Shown: piece by piece, positions 4,357 to 7,826 of the stretch
How the letters are laid out: each line of letters starts with the position of its first letter
How positions within the stretch are numbered: the stretch's first letter is position 1
NCBI GenBank assembly: GCA_937922045.1
Contig: CAKZXA010000069.1
Span: 1-48,365, forward strand
DNA: 48,365 nt
Direction of reading: 5' to 3'
DNA from: an uncultured Acidimicrobiales bacterium
Lineage (GTDB): Bacteria; Actinomycetota; Acidimicrobiia; Acidimicrobiales; SZUA-35
Notes under the pieces: model-generated
What the model saw: only the letters and a program-made list of their open reading frames with translations
What the model was told of the DNA's origin: nothing
Database searches by the model: none
Translations under genes and position numbers: made by a program

Positions 4357-4545
4357 TGCTCTCCCTTTCCTAGCCGACGGTTCCTGCTTCTGTGGGGGCC
4401 GGGGTCGGCACCATTCGTCAGCGTGGCGCAGTGTACTTGGCTCCAATCCCTGGTCCGAAACCAGAGGAAAACTGGGTCGAAGGTTTCTCCTCTGCCACGT
4501 CGCCCAGGTCTAAGGCGAGACCCTTCCTATGCCGTAGGTAGAGGT

Positions 4546-6807
4546 ATGGAATGGAGCGGCCGGCGCCGATCGACCTCCGGCGGTTCAGGTCGCACCGAAC
4601 TGGCGGCCGAGGTCAAGAAGGATCTGACCTTCTCCAACCTGCTGATGCGCCTCATTGGGGCCAGCACCGTAGGGCTGGTCATCGCCGCGGCGCCGCTCGA
4701 TCTGACGGTGTTCGAACGTCTGGTTATCAGCATTACCTTCATCGTTGTCTTTCCCGTGATCTCGCTCATGTTGGGACGCCTCGGCCCGGCCGGGTGGTCT
4801 GGGATGTTCCAGAACATGAGCGACTCGATGTTGGCCAACCTTGTTACTTGGTTTGTGCCCGCCTTGTGGCCAGCAAACCTTGCCTACCAGGGGGCCATGC
4901 TTTCGCTGAACCTTCCCCTGCAAAGGCGTCGCCCTCTCTTCGCTCTCGCCGCGGTCAGCATTGGCGGGTGGAGCTATGTGGGCTGGTGGACGGGAGCTGC
5001 GCTCTGGTATGTGCCGGGTCTGGTCGTTGCTGCGGTCATGTTGCCCTACGACATGTATGCGCGCCAGCGAAGTCAGCGACGCCGGGAGACGACGGACCGG
5101 ATGAACCGACTCATCTCGGCCTCAGATGTCGTCTACTGGGAATTCGACTTGGTCGAGCACCGATTTGTGACGGTGGTCGGGAACTCGCTCATGATCACCG
5201 GCTACGAACCAAGCGAACTCGTCGGAATGCACTGGCGACAGATGGTGGATCCTGAAGAGTTCGAGCGGGTGAAAGGATTAAGGCCTGAAGGCGCCGGATC
5301 GAGCGACTACGACGTGATGGTCAAACTCCTGCACCGTGACGGGAGGGTGCTCACGTGTCGCCATCTGCTCCAACTTGAGACGAGTCAGCTCGTGAAGGGG
5401 CTCACCTCAGATGTCACCGCTCTCGCTTCGGCCGCCGAGACCATTCGGTACCAGGCCCAACACGATGTACTCACCGGCCTGGCCAACCGCGACGTGTTGA
5501 ACGACAGGCTTGAGACCGTCTTGCGGCAGGCTTCGATCGAGGAGCCAGCGGCGCTGCTCATGCTCGACCTGGACCGCTTCAAAGAGGTTAACGACACGCT
5601 CGGCCATCATGTTGGCGACAAGATCTTGCAAGTATTGGCGAGTCGTTTCTCCGAAGAGATCGACGAAGCCATGTGTGTGGCCCGTCTCGGTGGCGATGAG
5701 TTCGCCCTCTTGCTCGGTCGAGCAGACCGGAGGGCGGCGATTCAGGTAGCGGCGAAGATCGCTCAGGCCACAGAGCGACAGATCGACGTCAGCCACGTGA
5801 AATTGGCGGTTGCGGCGTCGATCGGTGTGGTCATGATCCCTGAGCAGGCCGACTCGAGCGAAGAGGTTATGCGGTGTGCCGACATCGCTATGTACGATGC
5901 GAAACGCTCTGGCGACATCGTGCGGATCTACCACACGACCCCAGCCGAACTTACGCTCGATCGCCTCACGCTTAGCGCTGGGGTTTGCGGTGCTCTTGAA
6001 TCTGGTCAGTTCGAGCTCTGGTTTCAACCCAAGGTTGACCTGGATACGAAGGCGATCGTCGGTGCCGAGGGCCTGGCCCGCTGGCGCCATCCCGAGCGCG
6101 GTGTCCTGCTGCCCGACCAGTTCATCGACCTTGTGGTGCTCTCGGGGGAATATCATCTCTTCGCTCGCAAGATGCTCTCAGCTGGTCTTGACTTGCTCGG
6201 CGATTGTGATCGGCAGAACCTTCCCCTGGGTGTCGCCGTGAACCTGTCCTCGATGAGCTTCTTCGATCGCGAACTGCCGGATTGGCTGGCGAGAGAGATC
6301 GTGCGCCGAGACGTCGATCCTCGCCGGTTTACCCTCGAGATCACTGAATCTGAGTTCTTCGAAACCAGCACCCACGGCAATGTCTTTGAAGCCATCCACG
6401 GCCTGGGCGTCGGCCTTTCGATCGATGACTTCGGCACCGGGTATTCCTCTCTGGCCCGTCTCCGCGATCTTCCGGCCACCGAACTCAAGCTCGATCGGAG
6501 TTTCGTCAGTTCCATGGTGAGCGACAATGAGAGTCGACTCATCGTGCGGACGGTGATCGAACTGGCGAACATTCTGAACCAGTCGGTCGTAGCCGAAGGA
6601 GTCGAGGACACCGCTACCGCCGAGTTGCTCCTAGCTATGGGCTGCCCGGTCGCTCAAGGTTTCCTCTATGCCAGGCCAGCACCAACCCATGAGTTCATGG
6701 ATTTTGTGCACAACTGGCCGCAAGGCACCGCCAGCTTCGGCGGCTACCTTTCTTCGAGTCAGGCATCAGGCGAGTTTGGTAGACGCTCCTCGGTTCTTGA
6801 GGCGTAG
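4546..6807 (+). CDS. Membrane PAS-GGDEF-EAL cyclic-di-GMP protein
   Basis: The 753-aa protein starts with about six hydrophobic segments (residues 30-185). A PAS-like sensor (about 190-290, with VVYWEFDLVEHRFV) follows, then a GGDEF domain with an intact GGDEF (382-386) and an EAL domain. In the EAL domain the signature is EGL (508-510), but the other catalytic positions are present: NLSS, ITESEFFE, DDFGTGYSSL, LKLD, EGVED and QGF. An inhibitory RxxD site is not seen before GGDEF. Both cyclic-di-GMP synthesis and hydrolysis are possible. The ATG at 4546 is chosen because upstream in-frame codons are antisense to the SDR gene; the start context is weak. It is convergent to the selenoprotein gene with only 20 bp between stops. 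Confidence 0.88.
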   Translation: MEWSGRRRSTSGGSGRTELAAEVKKDLTFSNLLMRLIGASTVGLVIAAAPLDLTVFERLVISITFIVVFPVISLMLGRLGPAGWSGMFQNMSDSMLANLVTWFVPALWPANLAYQGAMLSLNLPLQRRRPLFALAAVSIGGWSYVGWWTGAALWYVPGLVVAAVMLPYDMYARQRSQRRRETTDRMNRLISASDVVYWEFDLVEHRFVTVVGNSLMITGYEPSELVGMHWRQMVDPEEFERVKGLRPEGAGSSDYDVMVKLLHRDGRVLTCRHLLQLETSQLVKGLTSDVTALASAAETIRYQAQHDVLTGLANRDVLNDRLETVLRQASIEEPAALLMLDLDRFKEVNDTLGHHVGDKILQVLASRFSEEIDEAMCVARLGGDEFALLLGRADRRAAIQVAAKIAQATERQIDVSHVKLAVAASIGVVMIPEQADSSEEVMRCADIAMYDAKRSGDIVRIYHTTPAELTLDRLTLSAGVCGALESGQFELWFQPKVDLDTKAIVGAEGLARWRHPERGVLLPDQFIDLVVLSGEYHLFARKMLSAGLDLLGDCDRQNLPLGVAVNLSSMSFFDRELPDWLAREIVRRDVDPRRFTLEITESEFFETSTHGNVFEAIHGLGVGLSIDDFGTGYSSLARLRDLPATELKLDRSFVSSMVSDNESRLIVRTVIELANILNQSVVAEGVEDTATAELLLAMGCPVAQGFLYARPAPTHEFMDFVHNWPQGTASFGGYLSSSQASGEFGRRSSVLEA

Positions 6808-6827: not shown

Positions 6828-7826
6828 CTAGCTCGGCGCGAACTGGCCGCCGAGGCACACCAGACATTGATCATCCCAACCAATGGCCCCTGCTGACTTT
6901 GCGTCATCTTCGGTCTGATACTGCGGCTGGTCCGATCGACCGGTTCTCGTGTCGCCAGCGGGTTGGGCGGTGGTGCCGGCATTCTCACGACGGCGACTCC
7001 AGCCGAGGGGATCAGCCTTCCAAAGGTCATCTTTCCACCGGTACGGCAGGTCGACGATGGCGCCGCCTTGTTCGATAGCGATTCCAGCCGTGAGGCCGTC
7101 GCCGAGCAGGGAGCGCTGGCCGGCCGGATCGTTGGGTGCCCCCGTGGTGTGGCCGAGCGGAGCATCGACAAAAACCGATCGGGGTGGATTGACCCGAGCG
7201 GTGATGGTGCGGGCAGAGGTGAAGCCGATCGTGGGGAATCCGGCGGCTTCGATGTGGCGTGCGATCAGACCGACCGACTGGTGACATACCGGTCAAACCG
7301 GGACGAGCAGGACGAGGTCGGGCTGCTCCGCCTCGCAACACTCCACCAGCAGGGAGGCGGTCTCTCCTTCCATGCGGCGGGTGGAGTAGATGCCGCCCAT
7401 AAAGGCGTAGGCGTTCTCGGTGAGCCCGCCGATCACACCCTCTTCGTTGAGCTCGCGTAAGCGGTCGAGCGGGAAGACACAGTTCGGGTCGGTGCGGGCG
7501 TCGGCCTGATCGTAGGCGAAGTGAGCGGTACGGAGCTCCTCGGTCGGTGTGTCGACCGGGATCCTGCGCACCGAGGTGTCATCCTGGGTATGAAAGGCGA
7601 TCTGTCCTCGCCGATAGACCCCGCCCGATCCGATGAGGAGGACTCGACAGTCGCTCAACGGCTTGGTCAGTGGGGTGAACGGTGGCGGATCTGGGCGTTC
7701 GGCCCAGCGGTAGGCGTCGTAGCCCAACGAATCGTAGAGTCGCTTTGTCTCAGCCAGATAGTCGGCGGGTGGCTCATCGCTATGTCCGCCAATCATCTCT
7801 GTGGCAGGGGCCGCAGGTTCGCTCAT
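6828..7826 (-). CDS. GrdB-family reductase, probable selenoprotein (in-frame UGA)
   Basis: The frame from the ATG at 7826 runs 177 codons to a TGA (complement of 7293-7295). It then continues without another stop for 154 codons to a TAG at 6828-6830. The part before the TGA ends DLVLLVPV and the part after begins PVCHQSVGLIARHIEAAGFP. Both halves match, from memory, the glycine/sarcosine/betaine reductase selenoprotein B family across the junction. Read as selenocysteine 178, the codon gives a U-x-x-C redox motif; a second CxxC (CLVC) lies close to the C-terminus. The total is 332 aa. The substrate is unknown; actinobacterial members are not in glycine reductase operons. The start is supported by TAACCT 7 nt upstream. 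No Sec machinery gene is in the window. Confidence 0.8.

What the first reader, a model, noticed from the sequence alone, without database searches (positions are those of the whole stretch)
7293..7295. In-frame UGA in a GrdB-family gene, most likely selenocysteine
The frame stays open for 154 codons past the UGA. The text on both sides matches the family as I know it (LLVPV before, PVCHQSVGLIARHIEAAG after), and the UGA creates a U-x-x-C motif. A stop and a decayed tail would not keep frame and motif. I could not assign a convincing bacterial SECIS hairpin by eye in the 45 nt after the UGA.
Basis: partly seen in the sequence, partly recalled or inferred. Interest (0 to 1): 0.7.

Follow-up and report, generated by a model that had tools for sequence, protein, structure and literature searches.

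The report
Stand-alone selenocysteine protein, PrdB-like
The stop codon in the middle of this gene is almost certainly read as selenocysteine, the rare selenium-containing amino acid, in a widespread bacterial protein that resembles a subunit of proline reductase but lacks that enzyme's usual partners, so its real job is still unknown.

Summary
The in-frame UGA (7293-7295, minus strand) is real and almost certainly a selenocysteine codon. Read through, the gene (6828-7826) gives 332 residues with Sec178 in LLVPV-U-PVCHQSVGLIAR. The genome has SelA, SelB, SelD and tRNA-Sec with anticodon UCA. UGA stands at this codon in 29 of 30 fetched loci from the own and related genomes and in 79 of 80 loci from a scan of named genomes (the sets overlap). 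Exceptions have Cys. The gene is PrdB-like rather than GrdB, fails both equivalog cut-offs, and the pyruvoyl subunit and GrdA are absent from its genome and from 59 of 61 genomes searched. Instead 71 of 80 relatives carry a C-terminal CxxC. Most likely it is a stand-alone Sec-based reductase recycled through Cys181 and the tail; substrate unknown. Sec-containing 'PrdB' has been reported from seawater since 2005 (PMC1088965), so this is a variant of a known kind.

The parts
6828..7826 (-). PrdB-like selenoprotein gene, 332 aa with Sec178, TAG stop at 6828-6830
   Evidence: translation with TGA=U; Pfam and NCBIfam profiles; homologues
7293..7295 (-). UGA codon for Sec178
   Evidence: UGA in 29 of 30 and 79 of 80 loci, sets overlapping; Cys in L223, L121 and L048/L080
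7284..7295 (-). U-P-V-C motif (Sec178 to Cys181), at a strand-helix junction in the model
   Evidence: positions 178-183 invariant in the 40 chosen sequences, Sec counted as C; strand 171-175, helix 179-194
7264..7282 (-). bSECIS-type hairpin: arm 7282-7276, loop 7275-7271 (GGUCG), arm 7270-7264; 17 nt between UGA and loop; 5 of 7 pairs standard in this copy
6855..6866 (-). C-terminal CLVC (Cys321, Cys324), candidate intramolecular reductant arm
   Evidence: CxxC within the last 45 residues in 71 of 80 loci

Best explanation
The UGA at 7293-7295 is a selenocysteine codon in a stand-alone PrdB-like selenoprotein. Shown here by sequence: the gene, UGA conservation, Sec/Cys exchange, the hairpin and complete Sec machinery. 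Inferred: SelB with Sec-tRNA reads the UGA with help of the hairpin at 7264-7282. Sec178, at the start of a helix, attacks an electrophilic small molecule. The product is released through a selenylsulfide with Cys181. The C-terminal Cys321/Cys324 pair, on an arm, reduces the selenylsulfide and is recharged by thioredoxin or a similar donor. It works without the pyruvoyl subunit and GrdA, so it is probably not a proline or glycine reductase. Estimates: Sec insertion 0.97; not a classical pyruvoyl-type reductase 0.9; the redox cycle with the tail 0.5; substrate unknown. The confidence below is for the first two together.
For: Sec machinery: SelA 330.7 bits, SelB 253.5 bits against a cut-off of 242.25, SelD 359.9 bits with its own in-frame TGA, tRNA-Sec 67.1 bits against 47, anticodon TCA. 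UGA at the position in 29 of 30 loci and 79 of 80; Cys homologues L223, L121, L048/L080. Hairpin on 79 distinct sequences: 86.4% of cells paired against 68.8% in shuffles, 87 double-change cells against 20.5, covariation score 0.441 against 0.127, 0 of 500 shuffles as high for these three; slid versions 18-36% paired. Normalised codon entropy 0.40 in 11 columns after the UGA against 0.70 in 88 others, permutation p 0.0002. Of 35 genomes with a homologue 34 have a SelA match, against 14 of 26 without. Pyruvoyl family PF09338 in 2 of 61 genomes and 1 of 28 from other groups. CxxC tail in 71 of 80. AlphaFold2 model pLDDT 89.5, Sec178 just before helix 179-194.
Against: No protein or selenium measurement exists here. 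In this copy 2 of 7 hairpin pairs are mismatched (C-A, U-U), as in most close orthologues. Two measures do not exceed shuffles: pairs with a change on both sides (5 against 5.4) and further pair types (16 against 14.3); the structure was derived from these sequences and the rows are related, so the shuffles are lenient. Cys forms keep 4, 5 and 6 of 7 pairs, which overlaps the 5-7 of UGA forms. The codon window was chosen after seeing the sequences; sliding windows there put 183-204 slightly lower (0.384). Nine of 80 relatives lack the terminal CxxC, and a paralogous group has U-x-x-D, so Cys181 and the tail are not essential to the whole superfamily. Gene neighbours do not name a substrate.
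Confidence: 0.9

Rival explanations
1. True stop followed by a decayed tail, or a sequencing error in one assembly.
For: UGA is a stop in table 11, and the ORF tool ends the gene there.
Against: The same UGA in 29 of 30 and 79 of 80 loci (overlapping sets, but many different genomes and phyla); many columns after the UGA are invariant or nearly so; Sec machinery present.
Confidence: 0.01
2. The UGA is read through but as another residue (Trp or Cys), without Sec.
For: No direct residue identification was possible. Pairing in the Cys forms (4, 5, 6 of 7) overlaps that of UGA forms, so the hairpin alone does not separate them.
Against: Natural exchange is with Cys, which speaks against Trp; the hairpin covaries, and the loop in Cys forms L121 (CCTGG) has no G in its first two positions; tRNA-Sec has the UCA anticodon; homologues track SelA.
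Confidence: 0.02
3. It is a D-proline (or glycine/betaine/sarcosine) reductase subunit, as the family names suggest.
For: Best NCBIfam match is PrdB, 161.4 bits, residues 47-267; 40 of 40 chosen members match that profile; Sec178 aligns with the UGA residue of a GrdB beside GrdE in G045.
Against: Below the PrdB cut-off of 300 bits; no PrdA over the cut-off in 61 genomes; no PF09338 match in 59 of 61 and in 27 of 28 others, whose completeness is not given; no GrdA match in 59 of 61; extra C-terminal CxxC tail.
Confidence: 0.05
4. Sec178 acts as a nucleophile in a non-redox transfer or lyase reaction, or in metal binding, and the CxxC tail binds metal.
For: A paralogous group keeps the UGA and the hairpin but has Asp at +3 (UPLDHQ), so a Sec-Cys pair is not universal; the tail is missing in 9 of 80.
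Against: UPVC is invariant in the 40 chosen members, Sec counted as C, and sits at a strand-helix junction; many redox selenoproteins are listed with UxxC in PMC13188914 and PMC9312934 (passages).
Confidence: 0.3

Closest known systems
D-proline reductase subunit PrdB (TIGR04483)
   Same: Homologous core (residues 47-267 against profile 17-237 of 238), U-x-x-C motif, Sec by UGA
   Different: About half the curated cut-off score, no PrdA partner found, some 30 more residues before the core and about 65 after it, ending in CxxC
Glycine reductase GrdB (PF07355, TIGR01917)
   Same: C-terminal half of GrdB aligns, with Sec at the same column
   Different: 30% identity over 158 residues; the GrdB of G045 has U-GTGTR-C, not U-PV-C; no GrdA or PF09338 match in this genome
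Selenoprotein called proline reductase PrdB in the Sargasso Sea and GOS metagenomes (PMC1088965, PMC2398784; passages read)
   Same: UXXC motif, PrdB homology, abundant in seawater samples; may include this very group
   Different: No sequences were compared here; the passages seen mention neither missing partners nor a CxxC tail

Membership tests
Bacterial selenoprotein (UGA/SelB type) | In-frame UGA with coding sequence conserved on both sides | tested here: met
Bacterial selenoprotein (UGA/SelB type) | Sec or Cys at the position in homologues | tested here: met
   79 UGA and 1 Cys of 80; Cys in L121 and L048/L080
Bacterial selenoprotein (UGA/SelB type) | SelA, SelB, SelD and tRNA-Sec in the genome | tested here: met
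Bacterial selenoprotein (UGA/SelB type) | bSECIS: apical loop of 3-9 nt, G in one of its first two positions, often followed by G or U, 16-37 nt from the UGA (model as stated in passages of PMC13188914) | tested here: met
   5-nt loop GGUCG, 17 nt between UGA and loop; covariation over 79 sequences; loop census. This copy has 2 mismatches of 7 pairs; no bSECISearch run
Bacterial selenoprotein (UGA/SelB type) | Sec found in the protein | not testable with these tools
   needs mass spectrometry or 75Se
D-proline reductase PrdB (TIGR04483 equivalog) | Score over the curated cut-off of 300 bits | tested here: not met
   161.4 bits
D-proline reductase PrdB (TIGR04483 equivalog) | PrdA partner with pyruvoyl precursor in the genome | tested here: not met
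   no match in G000, 96.87% complete
D-proline reductase PrdB (TIGR04483 equivalog) | UxxC motif | tested here: met
   UPVC
D-proline reductase PrdB (TIGR04483 equivalog) | D-proline reductase activity | not testable with these tools
   needs an assay
Glycine reductase GrdB | PF07355 gathering score | tested here: met
   37.8 bits against 22, but only residues 93-148 matched
Glycine reductase GrdB | TIGR01917 equivalog cut-off | tested here: not met
   42.9 against 602.2 bits
Glycine reductase GrdB | GrdA and GrdE in the same genome | tested here: not met
   no match in G000; both found in G045 and G056, which shows that the searches work

The most novel reading that the evidence does not exclude
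A widespread family of pyruvoyl-free, stand-alone Sec reductases, in at least Acidimicrobiia, Acidobacteriota, Binatia, Chloroflexota, Myxococcota and Gammaproteobacteria (by record titles). It carries its own CxxC reductant arm and a shared covarying SECIS hairpin. It would carry out an as yet unknown reduction outside Stickland fermentation and would be wrongly named where databases call it proline or glycine reductase.
Probability: 0.5. Interest if true: 0.6.

Novelty: new variant of a known kind. Interest (0 to 1): 0.4.

Why it matters
A gene caller that stops at UGA ends this protein at 177 residues, just before its motif. The evidence fixes a Sec site in a lineage whose nearest named relatives are Acidimicrobiales MAGs, with up to nine matches to this protein in one relative's genome (G002). 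It also suggests that some proteins filed under proline or glycine reductase belong to a different enzyme type, whose reaction could be sought with one purified protein. The covarying hairpin gives a ready model for SECIS searches in this group.

Tried and rejected
Rfam scan of the window at gathering scores gave nothing. Folding each post-UGA stretch alone gave inconsistent minima; the hairpin became clear only from comparison. Structure searches gave nothing usable: Foldseek against PDB and BFVD had no match at E <= 0.001, and VIA-align's best Z was 7.5, within the background range that tool names. A profile search of PDB sequences gave one chance-level hit (E 0.59). None of this shows a new fold.

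Gene neighbours did not name a partner. In 25 stretches from relatives, downstream genes shared with the window are PAP2 in 19, HerA-like in 18, SDR in 15 and SnoaL-like in 11; 4 stretches (L063, L070, L071, L073) show none of the ten neighbours tested and L072 only a weak GGDEF-EAL match. The luciferase-like gene upstream has a close counterpart in only one of the 25 (L061, 76%). Among 53 loci from other groups (the 22 largest clusters seen) nothing recurs widely: an enoyl-CoA-hydratase-like gene lies near in 5 of 53 (L173, L177, L201, L203, L204; named by eye), and other clusters look lineage-bound. I judged this too thin to infer a function. First attempts at the alignment used wrongly oriented loci and were redone.

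Rows dropped: the motif script failed for 8 of 60 paralogue loci (L084-L089, L121, L141). One search then showed L084-L087 and L089 to be U-x-x-D forms with 7 of 7 hairpin pairs and L121 to be a Cys form; L088 stayed unresolved; L141 holds the GrdB of G045. None of these 8 is in the covariation set, which has 79 distinct rows of 81. One search used 25 of 30 loci (L045-L049 left out). One search kept the best 80 of 104 relatives; the other 24 were not examined. In one search, 28 of 29 loci's genomes were searched (L204 not held), and the 29 were a selection of the 53 loci L171-L223. Searches used chosen members (40, 62 and 40 rows).

Full report
What is there. On the minus strand, an ATG at 7826-7824 opens a frame that meets UGA at 7295-7293 and then runs on to TAG at 6830-6828.

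Is the UGA coding? A search of 61 whole genomes (own plus 60 relatives) with the read-through protein found a match in 35. In 29 of the 30 homologous loci returned, the window's own included, UGA sits at this codon; the exception, L048, has Cys. A scan of named genome contigs found 104 relatives and kept 80. Of these 80, 79 have UGA and one, L223 from a Desulfobacteraceae MAG, has Cys. The two sets overlap for Acidimicrobiia. By record title the 80 include Acidimicrobiia, Acidobacteriota, Binatia, Chloroflexota, Myxococcota and Gammaproteobacteria; the titles call them MAGs, and one (L207, Klebsiella pneumoniae) is doubtful.

Sec machinery. The own genome has SelA and SelB side by side on contig 103, SelD with its own in-frame UGA and a tRNA-Sec with anticodon TCA. 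Of the 35 genomes with a homologue, 34 have a SelA match (in G034 only a fragment); the exception, G037, is 84% complete. Of the 26 without, 14 have a SelA match, two of them weak.

The hairpin. Comparison of 79 distinct post-UGA sequences, from orthologues and paralogues, shows a 7-bp stem with a 5-nt loop, 17 nt lying between UGA and loop. In the window the arms are 7282-7276 and 7270-7264 and the loop is 7275-7271. Stem pairs change together across paralogues: CCAGAC/GUCUGG, CCAAAC/GUUUGG, GCGUAC/GUACGC. The count gives 86.4% paired cells against 68.8% in shuffles, 87 double-change cells against 20.5 and a covariation score of 0.441 against 0.127, with none of 500 shuffles as high; slid controls fall to 18-36% paired. 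Two measures there do not exceed shuffles: pairs with a change on both sides (5 against 5.4) and further pair types (16 against 14.3). In the 80 loci the loop has a G in its first two positions, usually followed by U (census). This fits the bSECIS model as stated in PMC13188914 (passages read): 3-9 nt loop, 16-37 nt from the UGA. In the window copy two of seven pairs are mismatches (C-A, U-U), as in most close orthologues. UGA forms keep 5 to 7 pairs. Cys forms keep 4 (L223), 6 (L121) and 5 (L048), so they overlap, though the L121 loop no longer fits the model. Codon choice after the UGA is constrained: mean normalised entropy 0.40 in 11 columns against 0.70 in 88 others, permutation p 0.0002, 25 sequences; the window was chosen after seeing the sequences.

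Which family? Pfam GRDB matches only residues 93-148 (37.8 bits, cut-off 22). NCBIfam PrdB matches 47-267 with 161.4 bits, under its cut-off of 300; GrdB TIGR01917 scores 42.9 against 602.2. All 40 chosen members of the family alignment match PrdB (only the window's score was shown). Against a GrdB that lies beside GrdE in relative G045, Sec178 aligns with that protein's UGA residue, at 30% identity over 158 residues. A tree of 62 chosen sequences puts the window with 33 loci from several phyla on one side of a branch (99/96), apart from the paralogue groups; deep branches and the GrdB row are unsure. Clostridial PrdB was not in that tree.

No reductase partners. The pyruvoyl-subunit family PF09338 has a match in 2 of 61 genomes (G045, G056), PrdA over its cut-off in none, and GrdA in the same two. 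Of the 35 homologue-bearing genomes only G045 has them, and its match is that GrdB. Among 28 genomes from the cross-phylum set, whose completeness is not given, 1 has PF09338. So the protein is nearly always without them. It also has a part beyond the PrdB profile: a C-terminal extension that ends in CxxC in 71 of 80 loci.

How it probably works. The AlphaFold2 model is confident (pLDDT 89.5, pTM 0.90), with Sec178 in the turn between strand 171-175 and helix 179-194; the stretch 321-330 with the CxxC is less sure (mean 67). That the helix start activates the selenolate is inference. I propose that Sec178 attacks an electrophilic substrate, Cys181 resolves it, and the tail CxxC reduces the pair; probability about 0.5. 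Against it, 9 of 80 lack the tail and a paralogous group has U-x-x-D with the hairpin intact. A non-redox nucleophile role remains open at 0.3. Gene neighbours do not help: PAP2, HerA-like, SDR and SnoaL-like genes follow in many Acidimicrobiia (19, 18, 15 and 11 of 25), and in other groups nothing recurs widely among the clusters shown.

What is known. PrdB with Sec in a UXXC motif was the third most abundant known selenoprotein family in the Sargasso Sea set (42 genes; PMC1088965, passages read) and had 235 sequences in GOS (PMC2398784, passages read). PMC13188914 and PMC9312934 list D-proline reductase as UxxC (passages read). PMC5029168 counts 131 proline reductase selenoproteins in 110 organisms (passages read). 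PMC5330540 was opened for passages on Actinobacteria and gave nothing on this family. My eight searches (up to 20 papers listed each) and the passages of the six papers opened showed no description of a pyruvoyl-free PrdB-like group with a CxxC tail; the library lacks most subscription journals, and I read no paper in full. The Sec finding is therefore a further case of a known kind; the stand-alone form with its tail is the variant.

Noticed in passing
G000:C73:78217-79023 (L110) and G000:C70:11520-12086 (L137): Two more UGA-containing PrdB-like paralogues in the same genome, with UPVCHQTVSL and UPLCTRTV motifs and the hairpin at the same distance.
   Followed up: partly
L018 (G000:C14:85125-86042): SelD of this genome carries an in-frame UGA near its start (HGAGUAAK), so it is itself a likely selenoprotein.
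   Followed up: partly
L141 (G045:C77) and G056: Two genomes of the same order carry what looks like a real glycine reductase: PF09338 subunit, GrdA with UGA and, in G045, GrdB with U-GTGTR-C.
   Followed up: partly
L084-L087, L089: A paralogue group keeps the UGA and 7 of 7 hairpin pairs but has Asp in place of the +3 Cys (PAUPLDHQTVGL).
   Followed up: partly
window 4522-6807 (+): A GGDEF-EAL gene lies between the selenoprotein gene and an SDR gene; none of the 25 stretches from relatives shows it at that place.
   Followed up: partly
L207: A contig titled Klebsiella pneumoniae MAG encodes a 53% identical Sec protein otherwise seen in environmental MAGs; the title is probably a binning or naming error.
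   Followed up: no
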